Shown one piece after another: positions 1,523 to 19,893 of a stretch of 20,321 nt of DNA (position 1 is its first letter; each line of letters opens with the position of its first letter). Under the pieces are notes generated by a model. It ran no database searches. It was not told the DNA's origin and saw only the letters and a program-made list of their open reading frames with translations. Made by a program: the position numbers and the translations under genes. This DNA is from a virus: IMG/VR virus record IMGVR_UViG_3300017991_000456, positions 1-20,321 of that record; one strand, given 5' to 3'.

Positions 1523-3808
1523 TCAGTCGTCGAAATTCCATTCGTGAATACAGATCGGAACGCCGTAATTGATATACAAATACCATTCGCCAGTTGTTCC
1601 GTTGTAAGGGACGACGGGCGAAACGACGAATCCGGAATAGTTGAATTCGGGAAGATACGCCGGCCCGTCGACGGTCCCGAAAACGCGATACCTGGTCGGT
1701 TTCATGTCGATCGCCGGGAATCCGGATCCTGTCACGCGCATTTCGGCCAGGTTGTTCGTATTTTTGTCGTTCAGGGTTTCCAGGACGCCAGGGAAACAGA
1801 ACGTGACGCGTTCGGCCTGGTATTCTTCGTTGATCCCCCGAACGGACGATTGCGCGACATCGATCCTGGCGCCGTGATGCCTGGCCGCCCTGGCCGCTTG
1901 TTTATAGGCTTCGCGATATGTGATCGAAGAACCAGTGATGACCGCATGACCATATGAAAGCGGGGAATCCGCGGATCCGATCGCGGCAATGTAAATAGGC
2001 CCTGGCCATTGCCCGGCCTGGTATTTGACAACGCCGGAAATCGACCAGGGAATGACCTGGACGCCGTATCCCGGGACCGTGACGGATCCCTTGTTCGTCG
2101 AAAGGGGACCATCCATCGGCAATCCAGCGACTTCCCAGTCCCGGGTAACGGGAACGGACCAGGTATTCGTGACCGTGAAATTGCCCGAAAAAGAAATGTT
2201 CCAGGACCAGGACCAGGCCAGGCCGGCGTCATTTGTGACGTTCAGCGTTCTTTTCCAGTCGTTCGAATAAACCAAAGACCAGGGCGTCGGTTCCGGCGAC
2301 GATCGAAGGCGCGCATATGGTCCGGCCGGGGAATCCGAAATCTTCGCCCAGTTTGTTGTGACATCCGCCCAGGACCATCCTTCGCCTTCCCAGGTTCCGA
2401 CGTTCGATCCCAGGTTCGTTTCGACAACGCCGGCGCGCCAGGTGTTCGATCCCAGGGCCGTAACGGCGACATCCCGTTCCAGCATCATGTCAGACAAAAG
2501 CCATACGCCATCGCGCGCGGGATCCAGACCGATCGCGGATCCATCATATCGCGGGATCATTCGCTTCCAGACCTGGATGACATCGCCGACGTTGTTCGTC
2601 GAATTGCCGGCGTCCGTCAGGACGGCGAAGTTCGTCAGTTTTTGATATGGCGAAACGGGAACGGATCCGGTTACGACGACCGTTTCGAAATAGTTCGAAG
2701 TCGGGCCGATGTCCCCTTCCGTATATTCGCGCCAGGATCCGCCGATCGTGACCTGGTAATGGTCCGGCGCCGGCGCGTTTGTGTCGCCGGAAACGGCCTG
2801 GATCCGAACGTCGCCGGGATCGTTGTACCAGGAAAAGAATTCAGCGTCGCCGGCAAAACCGATCGGCCCGGCCCAAACGTTCGTCGACCAGGCGTTCGTA
2901 TATGTCACAACGCCGACCGCATCCGTCGAAACCGCGCGCCGGCCCAGGCGCGCTTCCGCGATCAGAACGCGGTTCGTCCCTGGCCGGATAGTGAAATATC
3001 CGTCGCGCGTGAAATCGCCGGATCCAGCCTGGTTCGTCATCCATTCCGGAGTATGATTTATTAGTTCTCCCCAGTACGCCGGGCCGCGATAGTAGTTCGT
3101 CGCGAATCCGAATTCTTCGTCGATACATATTTTCGCCAGGGACATTTCCGGCGGCGCTTGCGGGAAATTCGTTTCGCCGGCGGGATCGACGTATTCCCGT
3201 TGGAACCAGGTGTCGACGTCGATCCCTGGTTGAACGAAAAAATTCGCGGCCGATCGTTCGCTTGCGGAATCGTCGAAAGAATACCATAGGCAATAATCGA
3301 CGATCCGGAACGTCGCGAAGGGGACGTCCTGGAAATGGCACACTTCGACGCCGGACGATCCGCCGGCCGAATACGAATAATTCGTTGACCATAGCAACGG
3401 CGCCAGGGGATTCGTGACGCCGGCGTTCGGGACGCGCGTCATGTTCCAGTAATAGGACACGTTCGTCGTGATCGGTTTCTTCACGATGAACGGATAAATG
3501 TTCGTGACGCCGTCGACGATGCCGGTGACGGAAATCGAAATGTTCGTGACGCCGCCGTACGCGTCGGCCGAAATGACGCCGGCGATACGCGGAGTATCGC
3601 GTTCCCCGCGGGAAACGTTATACCGTTGCGCCGCGCGCCAGATCAGGTTCGAAAACGGATCAGGATCCGCCTGGCGCATAAGATGAAACGTCGGATAGTT
3701 TGACCAGGCCGTGAAGGGTTCCGTCCCCTGGGCGCCATCCTGGGCCGTCAGAAACGCGATCAGGGCCAGGACTATAACGCCGTGCCGATATGGATGTCGT
3801 GTTCCCAT
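1523..3808 (-). CDS. Large exported virion-operon protein, 761 aa, function unknown
   Basis: The N-terminus has charged residues, then a hydrophobic run (VIVLALIAFLTA, about residues 11-22) and an A-Q-G site near 27, which together look like a cleavable signal peptide. The mature protein is rich in Thr-Asn pairs, Trp, Tyr, Gly and Ser, with alternating hydrophobic residues, as in beta-sandwich adhesins or tail-spike stalks. No catalytic motif, lysozyme signature or repeat unit was recognised. The gene overlaps the preceding one by 37 bases and has no clear Shine-Dalgarno site, so translation may be coupled. The signal peptide supports this start over the later Met in MRQADPDPF. Its place after the tape measure suggests a tail-tip, fibre or host-surface role. 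An exported adhesin or exclusion protein expressed with the late genes is an alternative. The coding frame is certain; the function is not. Confidence 0.8.
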   Translation of the reverse strand: MGTRHPYRHGVIVLALIAFLTAQDGAQGTEPFTAWSNYPTFHLMRQADPDPFSNLIWRAAQRYNVSRGERDTPRIAGVISADAYGGVTNISISVTGIVDGVTNIYPFIVKKPITTNVSYYWNMTRVPNAGVTNPLAPLLWSTNYSYSAGGSSGVEVCHFQDVPFATFRIVDYCLWYSFDDSASERSAANFFVQPGIDVDTWFQREYVDPAGETNFPQAPPEMSLAKICIDEEFGFATNYYRGPAYWGELINHTPEWMTNQAGSGDFTRDGYFTIRPGTNRVLIAEARLGRRAVSTDAVGVVTYTNAWSTNVWAGPIGFAGDAEFFSWYNDPGDVRIQAVSGDTNAPAPDHYQVTIGGSWREYTEGDIGPTSNYFETVVVTGSVPVSPYQKLTNFAVLTDAGNSTNNVGDVIQVWKRMIPRYDGSAIGLDPARDGVWLLSDMMLERDVAVTALGSNTWRAGVVETNLGSNVGTWEGEGWSWADVTTNWAKISDSPAGPYARLRSSPEPTPWSLVYSNDWKRTLNVTNDAGLAWSWSWNISFSGNFTVTNTWSVPVTRDWEVAGLPMDGPLSTNKGSVTVPGYGVQVIPWSISGVVKYQAGQWPGPIYIAAIGSADSPLSYGHAVITGSSITYREAYKQAARAARHHGARIDVAQSSVRGINEEYQAERVTFCFPGVLETLNDKNTNNLAEMRVTGSGFPAIDMKPTRYRVFGTVDGPAYLPEFNYSGFVVSPVVPYNGTTGEWYLYINYGVPICIHEWNFDD

Positions 3809-9732: not shown

Positions 9733-10056
9733 TCAACGCGGACGGCGCGTGACGTCGGCCAGGATGGCCGCCAGCATGACCTGAAGGGCGATACCCTTCG
9801 AACGGACGTTCGTTCGTCCTGGGCGATCCTGGCGCGCTTTTCGGATCGATCGCCAGGCCCGATTCTTTATCAGTTCGAATCGAAAGTGTCCGAACCGGCG
9901 AATTATGGCCTGGTTCACGGCCGGCCAGTCGATCGTTCCGCCCGATTCGACGAACGCCAGGGCGTATAATGCGGCCAGAACGCGCGTCCTGGGCCGGCGT
10001 TTCAGGCCGCAAATACGGATGATTTCGGCCGCATTTCTGTTTTCATCCGTTTTCAT
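9733..10056 (-). CDS. Small basic protein, unknown, between MuF locus and tail genes
   Basis: This 107-residue, strongly basic, helical protein has many Arg residues and no signal peptide. The segment RVLAALYALAFVESGGTIDWPAVNQAIIRRFG (about residues 25-56) could be a helix-turn-helix-like fold, but no family was recognised. Codon choice (frequent CTG-GCC, CTG-GCG, ATC) is like that of neighbouring genes, which supports coding. The start has no clear Shine-Dalgarno site; a TTGACG at about 10088-10093 hints at a promoter but its -10 is poor. It is the first minus-strand gene after the 193-base gap that follows the plus-strand gene. It could be a tail/head completion accessory or part of the inserted MuF cargo. 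Confidence 0.6.
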   Translation of the reverse strand: MKTDENRNAAEIIRICGLKRRPRTRVLAALYALAFVESGGTIDWPAVNQAIIRRFGHFRFELIKNRAWRSIRKARQDRPGRTNVRSKGIALQVMLAAILADVTRRPR

Positions 10057-10212: not shown

Positions 10213-10241
10213 TATGATCCCCAGGTCGCCTTCAGAAAGGA
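10213..10241 (+). promoter_or_regulatory. -10-like box and Shine-Dalgarno for the plus-strand gene
   Basis: TATGAT at 10213-10218 matches five of six bases of a sigma-70 type -10 box. No good -35 is seen 16-18 bases upstream. AAAGGA at 10236-10241 is a strong Shine-Dalgarno sequence eight bases before the ATG at 10250. It fixes that start rather than the upstream in-frame ATG at 10172. Together they suggest the gene can be expressed independently of the late operon. Confidence 0.45.
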
Positions 10242-10249
10242 CGGGCTCC

Positions 10250-10519
10250 ATGTCAATCAAATACTACTTCCGCGTTGGCGATACCGGGGACACAATGGAA
10301 CGCCCTGGCGGGATCTATCGCGAAACGGATGATGAATCCGGCCTTCGCTATGAATTCTTGAACGCGCGCGGCGAATGGGAAGTCGACATGGATCTGTATC
10401 GTCATTTCGGCGGCCCTGATTTCACGGCGGACGTGATCCCAGTCAGTTTGAAACAGGCCGAAAAGGCGATCGCTGACTGGGCCAAACGGTTCCGCGTTCC
10501 CAGGGCGCCGGCGTCCTAG
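10250..10519 (+). CDS. Small acidic plus-strand protein; candidate immunity/antitoxin for the MuF toxin
   Basis: This is the only plus-strand gene I accept. It encodes 89 residues beginning MSIKYYFRVGDTGD, then GIYRETDDESGLRYEFLNARGEW and EVDMDLYRHFGGPDF, ending with a helix containing SLKQAEKAIADWAKRF. The layout (a YYFRV strand, a Gly/Arg turn, a WE-D..L segment, then an 'I....EAE..I' helix) resembles small proteins often found beside toxin genes in actinobacteria; this likeness is from memory. The start is set by AAAGGA eight bases upstream. It converges on the MuF gene: both stop codons use the palindromic CTAG at 10516-10519. Lying directly beside the toxin-like C-terminus and being transcribed apart from the late operon fits a lysogen- or early-expressed immunity protein (inference). 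Confidence 0.75.
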   Translation: MSIKYYFRVGDTGDTMERPGGIYRETDDESGLRYEFLNARGEWEVDMDLYRHFGGPDFTADVIPVSLKQAEKAIADWAKRFRVPRAPAS

Positions 10520-12423
10520 CGATCGCGCCGGCGATCTTCCGCGGCAAGTTGCCTTTCGATCCTTTTCGTTTCCGCATCCAGGCGCGCCGTTTCTTCACGG
10601 ATCCGGCGTTCCTGTTCCCGTTCTTCGCGGAATTGCGCTTCCGCTTCCGCCAGTTCGTCGCGAAGGCGTTCGTTTCGCCGTTCCGCTTCCGCCAGTTCTT
10701 TCTTCCGGAGTTCGTTTTCCCGGCGAAGGCGATCCAGGTTTTCTTTTGTCGGTCCCAGGCGCGGTTGTTTTGCGATCGCGCGTTGCCGGCCCAGGGTTCC
10801 GCGTTTCGTAATCCGATTGGCGCCTGGCGGCGTCGGAACGGTCGCCCAGGCATCGATATTTTGCTGTTTCCATCGGGCGGCCGCGGCGGCCTGTTTCGGA
10901 TCGTTCGGATCGACCAGGCGGATCTTTTCGTACAAGGGGTGCGCGTATTTTTCTTTCACGGCGATCCCGCGCGGTGTATGAAATTGCAGTTCGACCTTTA
11001 TGCCGTCCGGACGGCGCCAGACCGTATTTATCCCCTTGTATTTTTCTTCCGTCCAGGCGTTCCGGAATTTGGTCGTTCCGTCGTCGGCCTGGACCTGGCG
11101 ATATCCAAGGGCGCGTAACTGTTTCGACGTATTGATGACGCCATCCGTGTATTTGTCATCCGGCATGACCATCGTATATCGAAGGGAATCATGAACGTTT
11201 TTCTTGTCGATCGCGTCCAGCGGCCAGGATGGATTCGATTTGATTTCCGCGGCGATCTTCCTGGTCGTGGACCCTTCTTCCTTTACCGCATATCGGACTT
11301 TCCCGGTTTCCGGATTCAGGCCGACCAGTTCGGCATCGTTCGCTTCCGCCAGGGCGGCCATTGTCGCCGATTGGTCATCTTCGACGGCCCTGGCCCGGCG
11401 GACAATCTTTTTCGCCTTCCTGGCGACGGCCGGCCGTTCCAGGGCCGCGGACAAAGTTGTCTTGTCGCCAGGCGCCGGCGACGCCGCCTGAAAATCGGTC
11501 TTGTATTTCGCGACCTGTTCGCGATCGGACCAGTCGACGTTCGGTTGCGCCGCCTGGCGATCGATGTCGTTCATGTGGATCGTTTCGTCCATCCGCCGGA
11601 TGAAACAATCGCAGTTCGGATGAAACATCCCGGCGTCGAGGGCGGCCTGATACGACGGGAATCGCTTGTCCTTTCCGGAAATCGAAATTATCAGGCCGAT
11701 CCAGGCATCGCATATTTCGCAGGATTCGCCGGACGGGACGATCCGGACCAGGTCATCGCCGTTTCCGATGATCGTGTCCATGTATGATTCCCGGGAAACG
11801 CGCGCCGACGTCGTCCTGGTCAGCATCCGGATATAGTCGCGGTTCGACCATTTGCGGCCGCGCGCATCGATGAACCGATGACTGTCGATATTGCCGGCGA
11901 TCTTGTCCCAGGACGTTTGAAGTTCTTTCTGGATCTGGTTCCTGGTCAGGCCTTCGACGGATCCGCGTCGAAAAACTTCGACGGTCGCCTGGCGCAAGGC
12001 CGCGATATCCGTTTCCGCCATCTTTTTCGTGAAAACCGCGGCCAGGTGTTCGGTCTGGTCCGGATGGATCATCCGGAAATATCGTTCGGTCCGACGGCGA
12101 TCGTATTTGATGATCGAAGGATTGACCTTTCGGCCCTGGCGCCTGGTTTCGAAGATCGCGCGGCGATGCCAGTCGATCGCCGTCCGTTCGGTCATTTCCC
12201 GGCCCCAGCGGTCCAGTTCGGCGCCGGTCAGTTGATAGTGACTGTGGACCTGGTTGAAAAAGTGATCGCGGAAACGTTGCCGGCGTAGATTGTTTGCGTC
12301 CTGGGCGGCGGCGTGGATCTTGTCCGCCAGGGCGGCCCGGGATTTCTGGATCAGGCGTTCGACTTCGCGTTGCGCGACGCGTTGTTGTTGGCGAAGTTTC
12401 CGGATAGATCCCGGGTTCGGCAT
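10516..12423 (-). CDS. MuF-type minor head protein with C-terminal RelA/SpoT-like domain
   Basis: This 635-residue multidomain protein is a minor capsid component probably packaged in the head. Residues about 1-180 are helical and charged. Residues 190-277 match the phage minor capsid protein 2/MuF signature: NRDYIRMLTRTTSARVSRESY, then C235xxC238, then FHPNCDC with H268, C271 and C273, a likely metal site. Residues about 376-502 resemble RelA/SpoT synthetases: an R/K-rich lead-in, D412-S-L-R415, KYKGIN (461-466, the 'GYrSxH' region), VELQFHT (477-483, with E478 and H482) and H495. A coiled coil rich in Arg/Glu fills 558-632. The added domain is cargo-like, as in MuF polymorphic toxins, so the protein may be delivered with DNA and attack cell physiology by making (p)ppGpp, (p)ppApp or by tRNA pyrophosphorylation. 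It starts one base after the previous stop. Confidence 0.85.
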   Translation of the reverse strand: MPNPGSIRKLRQQQRVAQREVERLIQKSRAALADKIHAAAQDANNLRRQRFRDHFFNQVHSHYQLTGAELDRWGREMTERTAIDWHRRAIFETRRQGRKVNPSIIKYDRRRTERYFRMIHPDQTEHLAAVFTKKMAETDIAALRQATVEVFRRGSVEGLTRNQIQKELQTSWDKIAGNIDSHRFIDARGRKWSNRDYIRMLTRTTSARVSRESYMDTIIGNGDDLVRIVPSGESCEICDAWIGLIISISGKDKRFPSYQAALDAGMFHPNCDCFIRRMDETIHMNDIDRQAAQPNVDWSDREQVAKYKTDFQAASPAPGDKTTLSAALERPAVARKAKKIVRRARAVEDDQSATMAALAEANDAELVGLNPETGKVRYAVKEEGSTTRKIAAEIKSNPSWPLDAIDKKNVHDSLRYTMVMPDDKYTDGVINTSKQLRALGYRQVQADDGTTKFRNAWTEEKYKGINTVWRRPDGIKVELQFHTPRGIAVKEKYAHPLYEKIRLVDPNDPKQAAAAARWKQQNIDAWATVPTPPGANRITKRGTLGRQRAIAKQPRLGPTKENLDRLRRENELRKKELAEAERRNERLRDELAEAEAQFREEREQERRIREETARLDAETKRIERQLAAEDRRRDR

Positions 12424-12424
12424 A

Positions 12425-12826
12425 TCAGCATCCCCGGCATAGGCGGACCGACGCGGCGGCGGGCCCTTCGAACAACCATCCGCGGACTTCGTCGGGGATC
12501 CCGACGGACTGGCCTTCCGCGACGCCGTCCGGACAATCCGGATCGCCCAGGATCCATTTCGGCGTTGTCTTGTCGCCGGACGCTATGAAACCGCATCGGA
12601 TCAGATACAGGGCATATTCGAACGCGGCCGCATCTTCGCGCGGGAAGTCGGTTTCGGTCGTCGTCGTTTCGTCCAGTTCCCGGCCCAGTAAACGGACCAG
12701 GCGCCGGCGCGCGCCGGTGACGGCGGCCTGACGCTTGTCCTCGTCGTCGACGCCCAGCCAAATATCAGAAAATTCGTGAGAATCGGCGGCGAAATAGATA
12801 TCGGCGCCAGCGCGATCGATTGCCAT
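12425..12826 (-). CDS. Probable head-tail adaptor (connector)
   Basis: The 133-residue protein has a helical N-terminal half: an acidic DSHEFSDIWLGVDDEDKRQAAVTGARRRLVRLLG stretch (about residues 15-48), then TDFPREDAAAFEYALYLI (about 59-76). This pattern of 'D...kk.Al..Atr.id...' followed by a 'PR' element and a long helix is typical of small head-tail connector proteins sometimes labelled DnaT-like. The C-terminus has three Cys residues, including CRGC at the end, which is unusual and might bind metal. The start follows AAAGGGATTCCACA, a good Shine-Dalgarno spacing. The gene lies just downstream of a strong terminator-like hairpin. Function is inferred from fold pattern and place. Confidence 0.55.
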   Translation of the reverse strand: MAIDRAGADIYFAADSHEFSDIWLGVDDEDKRQAAVTGARRRLVRLLGRELDETTTTETDFPREDAAAFEYALYLIRCGFIASGDKTTPKWILGDPDCPDGVAEGQSVGIPDEVRGWLFEGPAAASVRLCRGC

Positions 12827-12900: not shown

Positions 12901-13179
12901 CTATTCGGTATCCGCGTCGCCTTCGGTATCCGCGTCGCCTTCCAGGGCGGCGATGATATCGGCCTTCGTCGCGTTCGAAGGAAGTTCCAGTCCCTTTTCT
13001 TCCGCCAGGGCCAGAAGTTCGGCCTTGTTCTTCGACGACAAGGGCGCCGGCGCGGCGTCCGGATCCGCGGGACCGTCGCAAACTTTCCAGTCGTCCGCCT
13101 TATAGAAATCGACCTTGTCCGCGTCGACTTTTATTACGGCGGATTCTTTCTTCATGAACACTGTTTCGCATATCGCCAT
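12901..13179 (-). CDS. Small head-region protein with SAP/HeH-like C-terminus
   Basis: The 92-residue protein has two parts. The N-terminus (MAICETVFMKKESAVIKVDADKVDFYKADDWKVCDG) resembles short phage structural proteins of the 'F..k..A.i.v.....dfy...W' kind. The C-terminus (residues about 47-80, LSSKNKAELLALAEEKGLEL and KADIIAALEG) is a helix-extension-helix, SAP or LEM-like motif used for nucleic acid or protein binding and often found in small phage head genes. The last 12 residues are two copies of GDADTE, produced by an 18-bp tandem DNA repeat at 12904-12939. It has a strong AGGGGAAAGTC leader before ATG. It is probably a head fibre, head-completion or DNA-binding accessory. Confidence 0.6.
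   Translation of the reverse strand: MAICETVFMKKESAVIKVDADKVDFYKADDWKVCDGPADPDAAPAPLSSKNKAELLALAEEKGLELPSNATKADIIAALEGDADTEGDADTE
12904..12942. repeat. 18-bp tandem repeat (2.2 copies)
   Basis: 12904-12921 and 12922-12939 are identical and are followed by TTC, the first three bases of a third unit. The repeat keeps the reading frame and encodes the duplicated GDADTE tail of the SAP-like protein. The tract is a likely slippage site that changes the length of the acidic tail. Confidence 0.9.
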
Positions 13180-13239: not shown

Positions 13240-13701
13240 TTACTGCAAAGGCGTTTGCCTGGCAAGGGATCCCTGGGGATAAATATACACGACGCCGCCG
13301 TCGTTCGTCCCGGTCAGTTGTAATTGCCCGATCAGGGATCCAGTGATGTTCGTAAGATATGGGATGCCGACGTCGACGTATCCCTGGCCGGCCGTTGCGT
13401 TCGTGACCGTCGGGACATACGGGACGTTCGTCGACGCGGTCCCCAGGCGGAATTCCAGGGTGACGTTCGTCAGGTCTTGCGTTACGACGCCGTCGTCATC
13501 CGAAAAACACTGGAATTCGATCCGAAGGGTAGTCCCCTCAAAAAAGGCGCGGGTATTGAATAGCGGCGCGGATCCGCGGTTGAAATCGACATCGAATTCT
13601 TCCGGATCGACATCGGCGGCGGAAACGGAGTAAAGGCCCAGGATCGCGACGATGGATATCAGGGCCCCGACAATGGGTAAGGGTATTGACCATCTTTTCA
13701 T
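13240..13701 (-). CDS. Small exported protein with BppU-like module
   Basis: The 153-residue protein starts with a clear signal peptide or signal anchor: MKR, a hydrophobic stretch (residues 5-24) and an S-V-S-A cleavage-like site near residue 28. The mature part, residues about 51-147, is beta-rich with motifs GTTLRIEF, LTNVTLEF, GYVDV, LIGQLQL and GSL. It matches in order the module in the exported protein at 1-1486, and resembles BppU N-terminal domains. The start follows AGGAAGGAAGAAAA. It lies between the coat gene and head-completion genes, unusual for an exported protein. Possible roles are head decoration after export, host-envelope exclusion, or a misplaced tail module. It has one Cys (residue 65). 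Confidence 0.7.
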   Translation of the reverse strand: MKRWSIPLPIVGALISIVAILGLYSVSAADVDPEEFDVDFNRGSAPLFNTRAFFEGTTLRIEFQCFSDDDGVVTQDLTNVTLEFRLGTASTNVPYVPTVTNATAGQGYVDVGIPYLTNITGSLIGQLQLTGTNDGGVVYIYPQGSLARQTPLQ

Positions 13702-13802: not shown

Positions 13803-13820
13803 TCCAGGGCTATCCCTGGA
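13803..13820 (-). other. Hairpin over the coat protein stop codon
   Basis: A perfect 7-bp stem (TCCAGGG/CCCTGGA) with a four-base loop ATAG contains the TAG stop of the coat gene in the loop and stem edge. It could protect the highly used coat mRNA 3' end. The words CCAGG/CCTGG are frequent here, so chance is possible. Confidence 0.4.
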
Positions 13821-14937
13821 AAATCACGCCGCCGTTCGGCTGAATTACTTCGCATCCGCAATAGACATCATAAACGATCGAATCCGACAGGGATACGGTC
13901 GACGATGACATCGAAACACGGATACTAATGCCCTTATATCCTTCGACCGCGGACCCCATGTTCAGCGGGGACGGTGCGACGATCGCGCCAGCGACCGAAT
14001 TCGGGTGATAGAGAACATCGGCCTGGAGTGCGGACTTGAACGTTACCGCGGCATCGTTGCCGGCGATGACTAGGGCGGCCGATACGGCCGGATATATCGG
14101 GATATCGCCTTCGTTCGACGCAAGTGTCAGATCCGCGGTGACGGTATAAACTTGCGTGTCGCCGGCGACAGTGAATCGCGTTCCCTTCTTTACGGTTCCG
14201 GCGGCCGCGGTGAATCCATCCAAGTGAACGGTAGTCGCCGCCAGGACCGGAACGCCGTCGGTCAGGACGGTTCCGGCGATGTCGCCGCGGTCATGTTCGG
14301 ACCCGTTCGGATCCGCGAACCAGTCGAATCCCAGGCGCCGCGGGAGATTGCCTTCGCGAAGTCCCAGGGGACCATCGCCGCCGAAATCGGCGTCCGAAAA
14401 CATGGTCAGTTGCAAGAACGACGCTTCCGCGGTTGTATCGATCAGGGCCAGGCGGCCGTTCTTCACGACTTTGTTGTCCTGAAGAATCTTGCGGCCGGCT
14501 ACGATATGCGCCTTCGTCGACGGATCGGTTCCTTCCGTTCCTGATACATTCCGCGCGAAACCGCGAACCATTGTATCGACGAAATACGTGTCGATCGCGT
14601 CCAGAATCGCGTCCATCGCCGGGATCGTGACCAGGCGCGTGAAACCGTCCAGTTCCAGCGACTTTTGCTTGGTTGTCAGGTCGACGCGAACGTCGAAGTG
14701 ATGTTCCAGGGTCAGATCGACTTCTGTTTCGGTGACATCCTGGGCGTTCGTCGAACCGGTGAATTCTTCCGCCGTGAAGGTTCCCGGGACCGTCACTTTC
14801 ACGGTATCCCCGACCTTGTTGGCCTGAAGAATTTTTTCCTTTTCGCGGGAAACCATGTTCCCGGTCATAAGGCGATCATGAAGGACGATAGCGGCGTCCC
14901 TGGCGACTAGCGTCGGAGTGATGAATGTATTTGCCAT
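13810..14937 (-). CDS. Major capsid (coat) protein, P22 coat-like
   Basis: The 375-residue protein forms the head shell. The N-terminus (MANTFITPTLVARDAAIVLHDRLMTGNMVSRE) and the following VGDTVKVTVPGTF, TEVDLTLEHHFDVRVDLTTKQKSLELDGFTRLVTIPAMDAI and IDTYFVDTMV stretches are the pattern of the P22 gp5-type coat family, an HK97-fold protein. The C-terminal part is beta-rich with VSMSSSTVSLSDSIVYDVYCGCEVIQPNGGVIF. The start at 14937 is chosen because it follows GGGAGAAAAAGTC, a good Shine-Dalgarno site, and the family begins MAN. An open frame extends to 15156 but would overlap the scaffold gene by 194 bases in another frame. Order portal-scaffold-coat supports the assignment. Confidence 0.9.
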   Translation of the reverse strand: MANTFITPTLVARDAAIVLHDRLMTGNMVSREKEKILQANKVGDTVKVTVPGTFTAEEFTGSTNAQDVTETEVDLTLEHHFDVRVDLTTKQKSLELDGFTRLVTIPAMDAILDAIDTYFVDTMVRGFARNVSGTEGTDPSTKAHIVAGRKILQDNKVVKNGRLALIDTTAEASFLQLTMFSDADFGGDGPLGLREGNLPRRLGFDWFADPNGSEHDRGDIAGTVLTDGVPVLAATTVHLDGFTAAAGTVKKGTRFTVAGDTQVYTVTADLTLASNEGDIPIYPAVSAALVIAGNDAAVTFKSALQADVLYHPNSVAGAIVAPSPLNMGSAVEGYKGISIRVSMSSSTVSLSDSIVYDVYCGCEVIQPNGGVIFQG

Positions 14938-14962
14938 GACTTTTTCTCCCTGGCCGGATCCG

Positions 14963-15616
14963 TTACTGGATTTTCCGAACGGCCGCGGCCCTTTCTTCAG
15001 TCGTTTGTTTATCCGGTGTTTTGTCCCCTGAAGGACCGGATCCGTCAGATCCATCGTGACCGTTCCCGCCGGATCCGTGTCCGGATTTATCGACGATCGT
15101 CGCCTTGTTCGCCGTTCGGAACGCTTCGACCAGGGGCCCGGTGACGTTCTGGTCATCCAGGTCTTTGTCGTCCAGGTTCGCGAACGATGTCACAAAAGCG
15201 CCTTTCATGATCTTTTTGTCGACCCCTTCGATGAATGTAATTCCGGATCCATCCATGATCGCGCCGATCTTCCCTTCGCGTTCCCGCTTCGCCACTTCCG
15301 CGGTCATGTTCGCGATTTGTTCATCGCGTTCCTTCACGCGGCCGGCCAGTTTTTCGACTTCCGCCTGGGCCTTTTCAAGATCGGATTTTCCGGCGTTGCC
15401 GGCATCCTCAATCTTCGCGGTCAGGTCGGCGACGGATGCTTTCAATCCTTCGACTTCCTTTTCCGCTTCCGCCTGGCGTTCTTCCGCTTTCCGCCTGGCG
15501 GCGGCCGCCGCGTCATCGATAGCCTTTTGGGGATCGTATTCGGCCAGCGCCTTTTTTTCGACGTCCGTCAAATCTTCCCCGTTCGCGACTTTCTTCAGGA
15601 TTGCGGCGATGTTCAT
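14963..15616 (-). CDS. Capsid scaffolding protein
   Basis: This 217-residue protein probably guides coat assembly and is then lost. It is highly charged and helical, with a coiled-coil heptad region at about residues 38-115 (Ala/Glu/Lys-rich). A short IMDGSGITFIEGVDKKIMKGAF segment follows, then a Gly/Asp/Ser/His-rich linker (GHGSGGNGHDGSDGSG). The C-terminus is a basic helix (TEERAAAVRKIQ), the usual coat-binding end of scaffolds. It is encoded directly upstream of the coat gene, with 25 bases between. The start is preceded by GAAAGGACACGAC. Two small hairpins lie in the leader. No protease motif was seen, so head maturation proteolysis is not indicated here. Confidence 0.82.
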   Translation of the reverse strand: MNIAAILKKVANGEDLTDVEKKALAEYDPQKAIDDAAAAARRKAEERQAEAEKEVEGLKASVADLTAKIEDAGNAGKSDLEKAQAEVEKLAGRVKERDEQIANMTAEVAKREREGKIGAIMDGSGITFIEGVDKKIMKGAFVTSFANLDDKDLDDQNVTGPLVEAFRTANKATIVDKSGHGSGGNGHDGSDGSGPSGDKTPDKQTTEERAAAVRKIQ

Positions 15617-15716: not shown

Positions 15717-17261
15717 TCATTCCGCCTGGTCGTCGGCATCGAAGGCGGCGCCGGCGTCGGGATCCGCCTGGTCGCCGGTGTTCCCCTGGACGACCTGGAC
15801 GGCCGGCGGCGCGGTCATCTTGTCCAGTGTCGCGTCGTCCATTTCGTCGATTTCCTTCAGGATTTCGGCCTTCCGGTCGTCGGGGATCTTTCGGATCTGG
15901 TCCATGATTTCGACGGATATCCGCATCGATTCTCGGATCGCGGACCTGGGGAGTTCCAGCGCCGACAATTCGACCAGGGTTTTCATATCCTGGGCGACGT
16001 CGACCAGGTTGAATTGCCGCGGGTATTCCGGTTCATATTCGGCGAACGTCGAATCCAGTTCCCGAGAAATTCCGATCGCCTTCTTTTCGACATCTTCCAA
16101 AAGGATCGCCCTGGTTCGAAGTGTCGCGGCCGGATCCAGGTGATCCCAGGCCTTCGATTCGGCGCTTTCGACCTGGCCGGAATCGCTTTTCCCCAGGGCC
16201 AGGCCGACGATTTCGAACAGTTCCTTTCGCCGGCGCAGGATTTCGTCAGGGATGGCCTTCAGGTCGCCGGCGGCCGGCGTCAGGTATCGGGTGATCCCCG
16301 CGGATTCCTTCGTTTCCATAAGCGGGTATTCGATGCCGCGGACCATTTCCAGGGATTCATCATATGATCGATCCGAAAGGCGCATGACTTCATCGACCAG
16401 ATCGGTCGTGATGACCAGTTGCGGGAACACGGTCTGAATTAGATTTTCATGATGAGCCGATTCCAGGTTCAGCAACGCGGCCTGTACGCGTTCGACGTCG
16501 TCGAACCAATACGGCATCGAAGATGGAACGCCGACGGGGACGAACGGGACCAGTTTGGCCGAAATTGTGAAATCTTCAGTTTGGACGACCTTTTCCGGAT
16601 CATCCGGATCCAGGTAAAGTCGCGTTCCCTTCCCGCGTTCCCAAACAGTCCGAATTACCTTTTCGACGGCCGCGGTCGCGGGATCATCGTTTTCATAAAC
16701 CGATTCTTGCGTTATCAACCAAACCAGGCGGCCATCCTGGCCGAAATGCCAGTCGACGACTTCCGTCGATTTCCATAGCGTCCAGAATATCCGATCGCCT
16801 TCCGCTTCGCGTTGTGCGACGGACCTGGTCGCCGGTTGTCCGGTTGCAGGATCGATGCCAGGCGTTCCGCGGTCGACGCCGATCCAGTCCCATTGTCCGG
16901 CCGTGTAGTTGCCGGAAACGTTCTGCATAAATTCATCGACCGTCAGGCCCGTCCTGGTCGCGTCCGCCGCGAACGTTTCGTCGACGTTGTTCCGGCCGAC
17001 GTCCTGGCCGAAAACGTATTGATTGACCTTTGTGACGATCCGGCCGGCGTAGTTTATCAGGAATGAACGATCGGGCCGGCCCTGGATCCCCGAACCATCG
17101 CCGTTCCAGGACGCGTCGGATTCGCACGGAAACCGGGAAAGGCGCGCGGTGATATACGCGCCGCCGCCGGCCTTTGCCATAAGGTTCCGCCGTAATTGTT
17201 CGTTTCGGTCGGAAAGGATCTTGTGTTTTCGCGTCGCGCGAATATCGGCGGTTTCGGGCAT
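15717..17261 (-). CDS. Portal protein
   Basis: The 514-residue protein forms the ring at the capsid vertex through which DNA is packaged and ejected. It has the SPP1 gp6/HK97-type layout: a helical N-terminus, INYAGRIVTKVNQYVFGQDV (about residues 70-90), a central domain with aromatic strands (VVDWHFGQDGRLVWLITQ), PYWFDDVERVQAALLNLESAHHENLIQTVFPQLVI, a long stalk helix near RRRKELFEIVGLALG and ESAESKAWDHL (355-385 region), and an acidic C-terminal tail rich in Asp/Ala/Gln. It follows terminase with 29 bases between and precedes scaffold. The start follows AAAGGGGAACATC, a strong Shine-Dalgarno site whose leader is a diverged relative of the 31-bp intergenic repeat. Confidence 0.9.
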   Translation of the reverse strand: MPETADIRATRKHKILSDRNEQLRRNLMAKAGGGAYITARLSRFPCESDASWNGDGSGIQGRPDRSFLINYAGRIVTKVNQYVFGQDVGRNNVDETFAADATRTGLTVDEFMQNVSGNYTAGQWDWIGVDRGTPGIDPATGQPATRSVAQREAEGDRIFWTLWKSTEVVDWHFGQDGRLVWLITQESVYENDDPATAAVEKVIRTVWERGKGTRLYLDPDDPEKVVQTEDFTISAKLVPFVPVGVPSSMPYWFDDVERVQAALLNLESAHHENLIQTVFPQLVITTDLVDEVMRLSDRSYDESLEMVRGIEYPLMETKESAGITRYLTPAAGDLKAIPDEILRRRKELFEIVGLALGKSDSGQVESAESKAWDHLDPAATLRTRAILLEDVEKKAIGISRELDSTFAEYEPEYPRQFNLVDVAQDMKTLVELSALELPRSAIRESMRISVEIMDQIRKIPDDRKAEILKEIDEMDDATLDKMTAPPAVQVVQGNTGDQADPDAGAAFDADDQAE

Positions 17262-17290: not shown

Positions 17291-18817
17291 TCAGCGCGCG
17301 AAGATCGCGTCCGGATCCTGGGCCGCGATCCTTTTACCGCGGCCAGGCAACGCGATACCATCTTTTTCCCTGGTAAAAAAGTCGAACACAATCGCCGCGG
17401 CGTCGGGCGGATCGTCGTGATCCCCGTCGGGAAATTCGCGGAACGTTTGGACGAATAGGTCGTTCCAGGGCGCGCGGACCAGGTGGACGCCGCCGGCTTC
17501 CATGACCGGTTCGACGGGCGCCAGTTTCGCGGACTTGTCCCCTGGTAGATTCGCCTTCGAAACGGACCGGACGCCCTTCAGGGTTCGTTTCAATTCGACA
17601 TAGGTATCCTTATATGCGCCGAACGCTTCGACTACGACCTGGACGGCCTGGCCATCTTTCTTCGTAGTGTCTAGGATCAGTTTGTTCCGTTCGGTCGCTT
17701 CCGCGCGGACGAATACCATGTCGACGATCCATAGGTCGTGTTTGATGATCTGGAAACCGTCCCGTTCGACCGTTGTCAGGACGACGGTTCCCAGGATCCC
17801 GACGGTATAATCCGGATCATCGGAATCGCGTTCCTTCGCCGACGACGCCAGATCCCAGGCGCGGATATACTTCCCTTTTGGAATTTCCTTCAGGTCGTGA
17901 TACTGGATCCGGTCGACCAGGAAACGGTTCCCGCCTTCGACGACCGGCGAACAGTCCAGCAACGCGGCCGAAAGGGATCCCTGGGCGGCGTACTGTTCGC
18001 GATACCAGGAATCGGGGAACCGTTCGGGGAACAGGAAAGCGCCGGATTCGGGATCCTTCGCGGGGAATTTCAGGATCCGGAATTTCGGGAAATCCTTGTT
18101 CTTTTCGCGTTCCTTTTTGATCCGGCCGCGGATGTCGTCTACGTGCCAGGGCGTCGCGCAAATAATCACGATCGATACAGGGGCCCGGCGGGAAAGGACA
18201 TCTTGGAACGCCGACCAGGTAGTCTTTCGATACTTTTTCGATCGCGCTTCCGCGCGGCTTTTGCAGTAATCGTCGACGATTATCAGATCGCCGCCTTTGC
18301 CGACCAGGGATCCGCCAAGGCCGGTCGCCGTGACCCGGCCAGTTCCGCCGGCGATCTTCCAGGACTGTATGGAATTGTCGCCGCGCGGGATCGCGACGTC
18401 GGGAAACAGTTCGTGGTACTTCGTCGATTTGATGATCGTTTTCGCATCCCGGGAAAACTGTTCGACCAGGTCGGCGCCATATCCCGACATGATGACATCG
18501 GGATCCAGACCGGCCGCCTGGCAACGGCCCAGGAAATAAGGCGGAAGGGCGCGCGATACCAGGTCGGATTTTCCGTGTCGGAACGGAACGACGATATCCA
18601 GGTTCGTCGATTTGCCGGCCAGGTAGTCGTCGATCGCTTTGTCGATCGCGTCGCATATCGCGCGGGTATGCTGGCCGACCAGGAATGGCCAGGGCTTCCA
18701 GAACACGAAACGGACGAATTCCAGGAATGATGACCTAGCCCCGCGTCGGAGCGCCAGTCTATCCTTCGCCGCCAGGATCGCTTTCCGCCGCGGCGACAAA
18801 GGCTTCGATTTCGTCAT
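17291..18817 (-). CDS. terL: Terminase large subunit
   Basis: This 508-residue packaging motor cuts and pumps phage DNA into the head. ATPase motifs: VVPFRHGKSD at 76-85 (Walker A), DLIIVDD at 177-183 (Walker B) and ICATPWH at 219-225 (coupling motif). RNase H-like nuclease residues: D322 in AWDLASS, E397 in VVEAFG, and D472 in the HDDPPDA stretch (467-473). All three acidic positions are kept, so the enzyme looks active. The length is normal. The start overlaps the small subunit by 59 bases, suggesting coupled translation. Gene order terS-terL-portal is standard. Confidence 0.96.
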   Translation of the reverse strand: MTKSKPLSPRRKAILAAKDRLALRRGARSSFLEFVRFVFWKPWPFLVGQHTRAICDAIDKAIDDYLAGKSTNLDIVVPFRHGKSDLVSRALPPYFLGRCQAAGLDPDVIMSGYGADLVEQFSRDAKTIIKSTKYHELFPDVAIPRGDNSIQSWKIAGGTGRVTATGLGGSLVGKGGDLIIVDDYCKSRAEARSKKYRKTTWSAFQDVLSRRAPVSIVIICATPWHVDDIRGRIKKEREKNKDFPKFRILKFPAKDPESGAFLFPERFPDSWYREQYAAQGSLSAALLDCSPVVEGGNRFLVDRIQYHDLKEIPKGKYIRAWDLASSAKERDSDDPDYTVGILGTVVLTTVERDGFQIIKHDLWIVDMVFVRAEATERNKLILDTTKKDGQAVQVVVEAFGAYKDTYVELKRTLKGVRSVSKANLPGDKSAKLAPVEPVMEAGGVHLVRAPWNDLFVQTFREFPDGDHDDPPDAAAIVFDFFTREKDGIALPGRGKRIAAQDPDAIFAR

Positions 18818-19346
18818 CGGTCATTTCGTCCAGGTGTTTCTTCAGGTCCAGGGCGATCCGTTTCGGCGCTTGCCATCCCTTCATTTTTGCCAGGGCGACG
18901 ATCGCGTCCCGTTGATCGTGAAGTTCTAGCGTCGTGATGATCGCGCCGACGTCCCCCGTCGGATTGTAGATCGTTTTCGAGGTGACCTTTTTGATCGCTT
19001 CCGGATTCGGAAGTTCGTCGTTCAGGGCGATATGCCAAACTCCGTCCAGGTTCGCTTCCAGGTAGTCGGTCAGTTTCCCGCGCGCCTGGCGCGTCAGGAT
19101 TTCTTCCGCTTCCTGGCGTTCCATGATGGCGCCCTGGGCGACGGCGGCCTTCAGTTCGTCGATCCTGGCCTGGACGTCGGGCCGGTTTTCGATCTTGTGG
19201 GCGTTCGTTTTGGCGTTCTGGCGCTTCCGTCCGGCGTTCGCTTTTTTCCCGCCATAACCGGCGGCCAGGTAGGCTTCGACGGTAGTTTCGCCCTTGAATC
19301 GGGCGACGGCGTACTGTTCATGACGCGGATTCTTTAACGGTGGCAT
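18759..19346 (-). CDS. terS: Terminase small subunit
   Basis: The 195-residue protein recognises phage DNA and loads the large subunit. It has the terminase small subunit (Terminase_2-like) pattern: HEQYAVARFKGETTVEAYLAAGY at 9-31, a basic KKANAGRKRQNAKTNAHKI segment, RPDVQARIDELKAAV at about 55-69 and an oligomerisation part, MERQEAEEILTRQARGKLTDYLE. The C-terminus (KKHLDEMTDDEIEAFVAAAE) is an acidic helix likely to touch TerL. Its start overlaps the end of the upstream gene by 29 bases, and its end overlaps terL by 59 bases, so the three form one translational unit. Confidence 0.9.
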   Translation of the reverse strand: MPPLKNPRHEQYAVARFKGETTVEAYLAAGYGGKKANAGRKRQNAKTNAHKIENRPDVQARIDELKAAVAQGAIMERQEAEEILTRQARGKLTDYLEANLDGVWHIALNDELPNPEAIKKVTSKTIYNPTGDVGAIITTLELHDQRDAIVALAKMKGWQAPKRIALDLKKHLDEMTDDEIEAFVAAAESDPGGEG

Positions 19347-19893
19347 GGTTCATCCCCCTTCGCCGGCCGACGGCGGCGCGTTGTTTCGTCGGCATTGTCC
19401 GCTTTCTACCATAGGCCGGTTTTTCCGCTTCTTGAGATGACCAGGACCAGGATTTCATCGCGATCGCGTACGCCAGGGCCGGCCAGTTCCGGCGCGCTTT
19501 CTTCAGGCGATTATGCGCCGATGACGTCGAAATCCCGATACGTTCGGCGACAATTCGAAGGGGACGGTCGGGATACGCCAGGCGATCCAGGACGATTTCC
19601 CTGGTCCGCGGTGATAGGGCCAGGATTTGTTTAGCGAGAAACGCCATCCCTTCGACAACCGGATCCGCGGCCGGATCGTGGACGACGGCCGGATCCCCGT
19701 TGAAATCGAAAACGCGATCGACGTCCAGTTCCGCTTCCCCGGGATTCGCCGACGAAAAAATCGCGACGTGACTTCGACCGTGATGACTTCCGCTTTTCGG
19801 ATGGCATTTTGAACATGGGACTTTATCCCAGGGTGTTCGCCGATATTTCCCGGCGGCGATCGCGTCGCCGACTTCGCACTTGTGACATTCCAT
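19318..19893 (-). CDS. Zinc-knuckle protein with sigma-region-4-like HTH; candidate late regulator
   Basis: The 191-residue protein has C3xxC6 and C27xxC30, a probable zinc ribbon, in the first 30 residues. An acidic linker follows. Residues about 94-137 (LSPRTREIVLDRLAYPDRPLRIVAERIGIS, then SSAHNRLKKARRNWPAL) resemble sigma factor region 4 or LuxR-type helix-turn-helix proteins, where a recognition helix follows 'iAe.lgis...v..rl..Ar'. The C-terminus is basic. It directly precedes terS and overlaps it by 29 bases. This suggests a packaging partner or a late transcription regulator. The start is three bases past the previous stop with a weak Shine-Dalgarno match. The assignment is based on motif reading. 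Confidence 0.7.
   Translation of the reverse strand: MECHKCEVGDAIAAGKYRRTPWDKVPCSKCHPKSGSHHGRSHVAIFSSANPGEAELDVDRVFDFNGDPAVVHDPAADPVVEGMAFLAKQILALSPRTREIVLDRLAYPDRPLRIVAERIGISTSSAHNRLKKARRNWPALAYAIAMKSWSWSSQEAEKPAYGRKRTMPTKQRAAVGRRRGMNHATVKESAS

What the first reader, a model, noticed from the sequence alone, without database searches (positions are those of the whole stretch)
10516..12423. MuF minor head protein fused to a RelA/SpoT-like candidate toxin domain
Seen: residues 190-277 carry the minor-capsid/MuF signature with a C-C-H-C-C cluster. Residues about 376-502 carry D-S-L-R, KYKGIN, VELQFHT and a distal His in the order of RelA/SpoT synthetases. Known: MuF proteins in temperate phages often end in polymorphic toxin domains, and small alarmone synthetases (ToxSAS) act as toxins. 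Inference: a virion-packaged alarmone synthetase or tRNA-modifying pyrophosphokinase is delivered with the genome. The coiled-coil tail after the domain (558-632) is an unusual extension, perhaps a self-inhibitory or packaging segment.
Basis: partly seen in the sequence, partly recalled or inferred. Interest (0 to 1): 0.78.

Follow-up and report, generated by a model that had tools for sequence, protein, structure and literature searches.

The report
Phage head toxin with inverted immunity gene
An uncultured phage carries a head protein fused to an alarmone-making enzyme, a published kind of phage toxin, but its predicted protective gene sits back-to-back on the opposite DNA strand, a layout also seen beside several related phage toxins.

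Summary
The ORF is on the minus strand (10516-12423, 635 aa): a MuF minor-head region with C235-C238-H268-C271-C273, a RelA/SpoT-type pyrophosphokinase domain (about 340-540), then a charged, probably helical tail. The domain matches the exported alarmone synthetase SaEAS (PDB 8vx3; phmmer E 7.9e-15; AlphaFold model pLDDT 90, Z 21.8 against about 12 for the next structures). D412, R415, K452, N466, E478 and Q480 are kept; the usual Arg of the ATP-site RxK motif is Ala.

It is a diverged relative of IapK, the small Apk2 immunity protein: profiles trained only on same-strand neighbours of toxins elsewhere find it at E 4.7e-8 to 2.9e-11 among 10,472 ORFs. Characterised apk2 loci have iapK on the same strand plus a hydrolase gene (aph1). 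Among 190 distinct toxin domains, 110 had a same-strand IapK-like gene, 13 an opposite-strand one, 67 none found. Toxicity, substrate, packaging and neutralisation remain untested.

The parts
10516..12423 (-). muf-toxin gene, 635 aa: minor head protein fused to an alarmone-synthetase-like domain
11608..11880 (-). MuF region (residues 182-272) with C235, C238, H268, C271, C273
   Evidence: Pfam Phage_min_cap2 E 3.3e-7; residue positions; PHROG minor head protein families
10804..11406 (-). RelA/SpoT-type pyrophosphokinase domain (residues 340-540), SaEAS-like; D412 at 11188-11190, E478 at 10990-10992
   Evidence: phmmer to 8vx3; leave-one-out profile E 1.8e-33; AlphaFold plus Foldseek and VIA-align
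10519..10752 (-). charged, probably helical C-terminal tail (residues 558-635)
   Evidence: composition; only sub-threshold coiled-coil Pfam hits; not modelled
10250..10519 (+). candidate immunity gene, 89 aa, IapK family, tail-to-tail with the toxin gene; the two stop codons share CTAG (10516-10519)
   Evidence: profiles without the window E 9.3e-8 to 8.1e-12 and, trained on same-strand genes only, 1.7e-4 to 2.9e-11; blastp to the opposite-strand partner of L104 E 8.3e-4; coding-like codon usage; AlphaFold pLDDT 82; AAAGGA at 10236-10241, 8 bases before the ATG, read by eye
12425..12826 (-). gene directly before the muf-toxin gene; function not identified
   Evidence: no PHROG match at E up to 0.01, no Pfam match at E up to 1
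9733..10056 (-). next co-directional ORF beyond the inverted gene; function not identified
   Evidence: no Pfam match, PHROG E 0.11 only; no aph1-profile hit in the window
13810..15156 (-). major head protein ORF
   Evidence: PHROG 283 E 1.4e-55
15717..17261 (-). portal protein
   Evidence: PHROG 145 E 2.9e-31
17291..18817 (-). terminase large subunit
   Evidence: PHROG 38 E 5e-70

Best explanation
This is a MuF polymorphic toxin of the Apk2/exported-alarmone-synthetase kind with a cognate immunity gene. Shown here: the domain architecture, the SaEAS-like fold and active site by homology and prediction, and the IapK-family relationship of the opposite-strand neighbour. Inferred: the MuF part places a few copies in the phage head; the C-terminal domain moves pyrophosphate from ATP to the 3'-OH of a purine nucleotide, making (p)ppApp and perhaps (p)ppGpp, once it is in a cell; this drains ATP or GTP and stops growth. 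The small IapK-like protein made from the opposite strand blocks the active site and protects the producing cell, from its own transcript rather than from the late head operon.
For: Toxin: phmmer 8vx3 E 7.9e-15; leave-one-out profile E 1.8e-33; model pLDDT 90.3, Foldseek best 8vx3 E 1.8e-12, VIA Z 21.8 over 202 residues, next rows Z about 12. Residues reported for SaEAS (D121, R124, K154, N169, E182, Q184) correspond to D412, R415, K452, N466, E478, Q480, counted by hand on the alignment. MuF. Immunity: profiles built without the window reach the ORF at E 9.3e-8 (round 3), 8.1e-12 (round 4), 3e-11 (round 5) among 10,472 ORFs. With only same-strand neighbours in training: E 0.39, 1.7e-4, 4.7e-8, 2.9e-11, 1e-10 in rounds 2-6, and 0 of 5,000 shuffles scoring as high from round 3 on. 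The best single-sequence match is itself an opposite-strand toxin neighbour, L104, E 8.3e-4. Codon score 0.26 bits per codon against 0.20-0.57 for 13 main genes, on which the score was trained, and at most 0.09 for the other plus-strand ORFs scored.
Against: The Arg of the RxK motif is Ala (A379), and a conserved Ser after QFHT (S in 74 of 75 rows) is Gly. No IapK signal in rounds 0 and 1 of any iteration: there 136 and 87 to 160 of 5,000 shuffles scored as high, so the link needs intermediate sequences. No aph1-like hydrolase in the fragment. No promoter-like site near the immunity gene, though that scan covers sigma-70 type only. Pfam RelA_SpoT misses the domain. No PDB match for the immunity model at E up to 0.001. 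Nothing here shows packaging, injection, toxicity or neutralisation. No tyrosine integrase in the window or in 8 related records, all possibly fragments, so lysogeny is unproved.
Confidence: 0.74

Rival explanations
1. Same protein, but its job is takeover of the infected cell or the lysis-lysogeny choice rather than competition: the injected synthetase slows host metabolism in the phage's favour and the inverted gene switches it off.
For: Jamet et al. propose influence on the lysogeny decision as one role of MuF toxins (PMC5576092, passages). No tyrosine integrase was found in the window or in 8 related records.
Against: A dedicated immunity protein fits protection of a producing cell better. 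Two of three Apk2 domains tested in E. coli were bactericidal and the third slowed growth (PMC12226406).
Confidence: 0.3
2. A tRNA 3'-end pyrophosphokinase, as in the toxSAS group FaRel2/PhRel2/CapRel, rather than a nucleotide pyrophosphokinase.
For: Same superfamily fold: CapRel Z 11.4, FaRel2 Z 7.5.
Against: SaEAS is far nearer (Z 21.8). The RYT and GxN motifs are those described for Apk enzymes; SaEAS has RYT, GxN and QFHT in the alignment, as the window does.
Confidence: 0.07
3. A decayed or non-catalytic domain kept as a structural extension.
For: RxK Arg replaced by Ala and Ser to Gly after QFHT; a 7-residue insert before the RxK motif.
Against: All 12 invariant columns are kept. The RxK Arg is also replaced in 12 of the 74 other rows (A, V, K, N or S). 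An immunity-family gene with coding-like codon use sits beside it.
Confidence: 0.1
4. The plus-strand ORF is spurious and the toxin has no immunity here, as in Sec-exported SaEAS.
For: No match in phage or plasmid records at E up to 1, in Pfam at E up to 1, or in PDB folds at E up to 0.001.
Against: Profile E 9.3e-8 to 8.1e-12, also without any opposite-strand gene in training; shuffle controls; codon usage; position and the shared CTAG stop; BFVD fold match E 3.5e-6, TM 0.76, an unnamed protein.
Confidence: 0.06

Closest known systems
Apk2 (MuF adenosine 3'-pyrophosphokinase toxins of Streptococcus, Mannheimia and Pasteurella prophages; PMC12226406)
   Same: MuF head part followed by a RelA/SpoT-fold synthetase domain with RYT and GxN motifs; IapK-family partner next to it
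   Different: 24-30% identity in the domain to the phage relatives L001-L006 and L009; syn4 FH instead of YH; immunity gene on the opposite strand; no aph1 found; 95-residue tail; gene lies after the major head gene, not next to the portal gene; acceptor nucleotide unknown
SaEAS (Streptomyces albidoflavus exported alarmone synthetase, PDB 8vx3; PMC12691689)
   Same: Closest solved structure and sequence; same ATP-site residues; FH in syn4
   Different: SaEAS is Sec-exported, has no phage part and no immunity gene; it makes (p)ppGpp and (p)ppApp
IapK immunity proteins
   Same: The 89-aa ORF belongs to the same profile family and sits at the same place, next to the toxin's 3' end
   Different: Longer (89 against about 70 aa), very diverged, inverted
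Apk1/Tas1 with Tis1 (T6SS; PDB 6ox6)
   Same: Same catalytic fold, Z 12.3
   Different: PAAR/T6SS delivery (PMC12226406); no PDB match at E up to 0.001 for the window's partner

Membership tests
MuF polymorphic toxin | MuF-family head domain in the N-terminal part | tested here: met
   Pfam Phage_min_cap2 above its cut-off; PHROG minor head families
MuF polymorphic toxin | muf gene directly after the portal gene (context given in PMC5576092, passages) | tested here: not met
   A further ORF (14963-15616), the major head gene and other ORFs lie between portal (15717-17261) and muf (10516-12423); membership by the Pfam domain does not need this context
MuF polymorphic toxin | Known toxin domain in the C-terminal part | tested here: met
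   the domain is followed by a tail of about 95 residues
MuF polymorphic toxin | Small ORF downstream that encodes an immunity protein | tested here: inconclusive
   IapK-family ORF adjacent but on the opposite strand; neutralisation not tested
Apk2 | MuF part plus synthetase domain in one protein | tested here: met
Apk2 | Adenosine 3'-pyrophosphokinase activity | not testable with these tools
   Motifs are compatible, but SaEAS with RYT, GxN and QFHT uses both purines
Apk2 | iapK and aph1 genes following on the same strand (usual context, not the definition) | tested here: not met
   IapK relative is inverted; no aph1-profile hit in the window, which may be a fragment
Apk2 | Falls in the clade of the characterised Apk2 domains | tested here: inconclusive
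   The free trees put the window elsewhere with weak support; the AU test does not reject it inside that clade, p 0.77
RelA/SpoT-type synthetase fold | Fold and metal/ATP residues | tested here: met
   the RxK Arg is Ala; Pfam RelA_SpoT does not ring
toxSAS tRNA pyrophosphokinases | tRNA CCA end as acceptor | not testable with these tools
   Weaker fold similarity only
IapK immunity | Sequence family | tested here: met
   Window-free profiles E 9.3e-8 to 8.1e-12, same-strand training only 2.9e-11; not visible in rounds 0 and 1
IapK immunity | Blocks the toxin's active site by binding | not testable with these tools
   No complex was modelled

The most novel reading that the evidence does not exclude
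A recurrent 'inverted immunity' layout of phage head toxins: the immunity gene is set tail-to-tail against the toxin gene inside an otherwise one-way head operon, so that immunity (and antisense reading into the toxin's 3' end) comes from its own transcript in lysogens or early in infection, uncoupled from late toxin synthesis. The layout seems to have arisen several times.
Probability: 0.35. Interest if true: 0.58.

Novelty: new variant of a known kind. Interest (0 to 1): 0.42.

Why it matters
The toxin itself adds a diverged, environmental member to a published kind. The inverted IapK-like gene matters more: a phage that packs a toxin into its own head must protect the cell that makes or inherits it, and when that protection is expressed is, as far as I know, open. 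An immunity gene on the opposite strand, found beside several diverged toxin domains, makes it directly testable whether immunity is expressed apart from the head genes. The profile also extends the IapK family well beyond the characterised sets and finds immunity genes that a search restricted to same-strand neighbours would miss.

Tried and rejected
Single-protein scans of viral contigs with the toxin domain, the immunity ORF and the MuF part found no confirmed relative; alignment queries were needed. Phage and plasmid records gave no relative of the immunity ORF at E up to 1. PADLOC gave nothing useful. The immunity model had no PDB match at E up to 0.001, so a Tis1- or antitoxin-like fold was neither shown nor excluded. 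Placing the window inside or outside the Apk2 clade failed: weak support, and the AU test did not reject the window inside it. The idea that the tail is special was dropped. A regular expression for the MuF His/Cys pattern (found in 32 of 111 viral/other and 0 of 79 genome rows) was too strict to count MuF parts: it missed L029, which PHROGs shows to have a head-morphogenesis part; for comparison Pfam rang Phage_Mu_F in 20 and Phage_min_cap2 in 4 of 54 ORFs. For L098 and L104 PHROGs matched only the toxin region, so a MuF part there is not shown. Host: terminase and capsid relatives in phage records are all under 60% identical and spread over many hosts; no host is claimed. Limits of the censuses: the loci kept were the best 80 of 296 and of 212 confirmed viral matches and the best 80 (79 loci) of 218 genome matches; counts are for those sets plus the 11 phage and plasmid loci and the window. 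An earlier, smaller census (75 distinct domains: 52 same strand, 2 opposite, 2 inside the toxin ORF, 19 none) is superseded.

Full report
WHAT IS THERE. The window is a virus record of 20,321 bases and may be a fragment. The genes that could be named run on the minus strand: terminase small and large subunits, portal, major head protein, the muf gene in question, a tail-completion/neck protein and a tape measure, with unnamed ORFs between. The finding's ORF is the minus-strand 10516-12423, 635 aa. Its MuF region matches Pfam Phage_min_cap2 at residues 182-272, E 3.3e-7, and holds all four cysteines of the protein and H268.

THE C-TERMINAL DOMAIN. Pfam RelA_SpoT does not ring. But phmmer of the domain against all PDB chains gives one match, 8vx3, at E 7.9e-15. 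That entry is named SaSAS in the sequence table and is the SaEAS enzyme of PMC12691689 (parts 1-3 of 11 of the text read; further passages). A toxin profile from ten relatives, without the window, finds the ORF at E 1.8e-33 among 4,256 ORFs. An AlphaFold model of residues 320-556 built on 63 viral relatives has mean pLDDT 90.3 and pTM 0.86. Its best PDB match is 8vx3 (Foldseek E 1.8e-12; VIA Z 21.8, rmsd 2.7 over 202 residues); the next rows are small alarmone synthetases and Tas1 at Z about 12, and DNA polymerase folds reach about 8.

ACTIVE SITE. Twelve columns are invariant in the 64-row alignment, the window among them: K381, K389, D412, R415, T417, E478, Q480, H482, T483, H495, R502, P532. 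SaEAS residues D121, R124, K154, N169, E182 and Q184 fall on D412, R415, K452, N466, E478 and Q480; the mapping was counted by hand on the alignment printed. Departures: the RxK Arg is Ala (R in 62 of 75 rows; A, V, K, N or S in the other 13, window included) and the Ser after QFHT is Gly (S in 74 of 75); 7 residues are inserted just before RxK. Residue numbers printed run one lower than those of the alignment tool used here.

THE PARTNER GENE. Characterised apk2 loci carry iapK and the hydrolase gene aph1 after the toxin gene (PMC12226406, whole text read). In the phage loci fetched here both lie on the toxin's strand in L001-L005 and L009, and iapK alone in L006. The window has neither on that strand. 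It has a plus-strand ORF whose ATG at 10250 follows AAAGGA at 10236-10241 (read by eye) and whose stop codon overlaps the toxin's stop codon in CTAG at 10516-10519. Its codon use scores 0.26 bits per codon; the 13 main genes on which the score was trained give 0.20-0.57, and the other plus-strand ORFs scored (ATG start, 60 aa or more) at most 0.09, apart from the same ORF counted from an earlier start (0.19).

FAMILY OF THE PARTNER. A profile was seeded with seven same-strand neighbours of MuF toxins and iterated (rounds numbered from 0), accepting only ORFs near a toxin domain and never the window. In the first set (4,256 ORFs) the window's ORF was not reported in rounds 0 and 1 and came up at E 0.16 and 0.017 in rounds 2 and 3; 136, 160, 1 and 0 of 5,000 shuffled versions scored as high in rounds 0 to 3. 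With two more scans (252 loci, 249 with the toxin domain, 10,472 ORFs) it was again absent in rounds 0 and 1 and reached E 0.041, 9.3e-8, 8.1e-12 and 3e-11 in rounds 2 to 5, with 0 of 5,000 shuffles as high from round 2 on. From round 2 those profiles include opposite-strand genes of other loci. A control that trained on same-strand genes only gave E 0.39, 1.7e-4, 4.7e-8, 2.9e-11 and 1e-10 in rounds 2 to 6, so the result does not depend on them; of 566 minus-strand ORFs in the zone behind the toxin genes, duplicates and the window included, 14 scored below 1e-3 in round 6 (L104, window, L100, L108, L107, L029 and three copies of it, L098, L113, L102, L164, L125). The best single-sequence match is the opposite-strand gene of L104, E 8.3e-4, 31% over 77 aa. 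An AlphaFold model has pLDDT 82, no PDB match at E up to 0.001 and one viral-structure match below 0.001, an unnamed 92-aa protein, E 3.5e-6 and TM 0.76.

HOW COMMON IS THE INVERSION. Among 190 distinct toxin domains (exact-sequence duplicates merged, near-duplicates kept), an IapK-like ORF at E below 0.02 was found on the same strand in 110 (75 viral/other, 35 genome), on the opposite strand in 13 (12 viral/other plus the window) and not at all in 67 (23 and 44). Of the 13, L013 (E 0.011) and L125 (E 0.0016) are weak, and L132's gene lies 1,137 bases away. Ten, the window included, lie within 33 bases of or overlap the toxin gene's end with E below 1e-3: L029, L098, L100, L102, L104, L107, L108, L113, L164 and the window; L100 and L102 are cut by the contig end, L107 and L108 are near-twins, and L098, L102 and L113 are close kin. 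In L098 and L104 the inverted gene lies between the toxin gene and a major head gene that again runs in the toxin's direction, as in the window, where co-directional ORFs flank the inverted gene on both sides. L029 shares the CTAG stop overlap, but there further minus-strand ORFs follow. On a quick tree of 111 viral/other domains, 88 with a known orientation, seven of the inverted cases group together and the rest, the window included, are scattered; the fewest changes are 6. The tree is poorly supported, so several origins are likely but not proven.

MECHANISM. Shown: architecture, fold, active-site residues, family of the partner. From the literature: Apk2 domains make (p)ppApp, slow or kill E. 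coli, and are neutralised by IapK binding or Aph1 hydrolysis (PMC12226406); SaEAS makes both alarmones (PMC12691689); MuF proteins are thought to sit in the head and are proposed to enter the cell with the DNA (PMC12226406; PMC5576092, passages only). Inferred: that this protein does the same, and that the inverted gene gives immunity from a separate transcript. The acceptor nucleotide cannot be called: the window has the RYT and GxN motifs of Apk enzymes but FH, as in SaEAS, rather than YH.

NOVELTY. RelA-like MuF toxins were reported in 2017 (PMC5576092) and characterised since; 39 MuF sequences are counted in PMC12691689. I saw no mention of opposite-strand immunity genes in the texts seen: in PMC5576092 a word search gave no 'opposite' or 'orientation', and 'convergent' and 'strand' only in the reference list; PMC12226406 says that the two genes follow apk2. 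Searches of the held library. The primary papers Bartoli 2023 and Ahmad 2023 were not read (Ahmad not held; Bartoli seen only in a reference list), so absence from print is not claimed.

Noticed in passing
L081:3632-6904 and L084:3773-8263: A weak IapK-like segment lies directly after the toxin domain inside the same long ORF (E 0.005 and 0.015; positions), as if toxin and immunity were fused.
   Followed up: partly
L059 and L061 (2,070-aa ORFs); L043 and L067 (1,518 aa or more, open at the contig side): The synthetase domain sits inside or near the end of very long phage ORFs.
   Followed up: no
alignment A4 members: Among 54 toxin ORFs scanned with Pfam, one carries a Zeta toxin domain, one a XkdF-like serine protease domain and two DUF5872.
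   Followed up: no
window 1523-3808 and 13240-13701, minus strand: Two ORFs in the structural cluster begin with signal-peptide-like hydrophobic N-termini (judged by eye), odd for phage structural genes.
   Followed up: no
window 12901-13179, minus strand: The C-terminal half of this 92-aa ORF matches short segments of PHROG endonuclease VII and Arc-like families (best E 1.1e-9), probably a shared small motif.
   Followed up: no
window 19318-19893, minus strand: ORF with a sigma-70 region 4 domain (Pfam E 3.5e-6) beside the terminase genes.
   Followed up: no
L093 (5,968-base contig): A second IMG/VR contig carries a terminase large subunit 100% identical to the window's, so the phage or a very close one was assembled more than once.
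   Followed up: no
window 10516-12423: The toxin domain also matches the C-terminal end of the XopAD type III effector model of NCBIfam (80.6 bits against a whole-protein cut-off of 2000); PMC12691689 notes alarmone synthetase domains in XopAD proteins.
   Followed up: no
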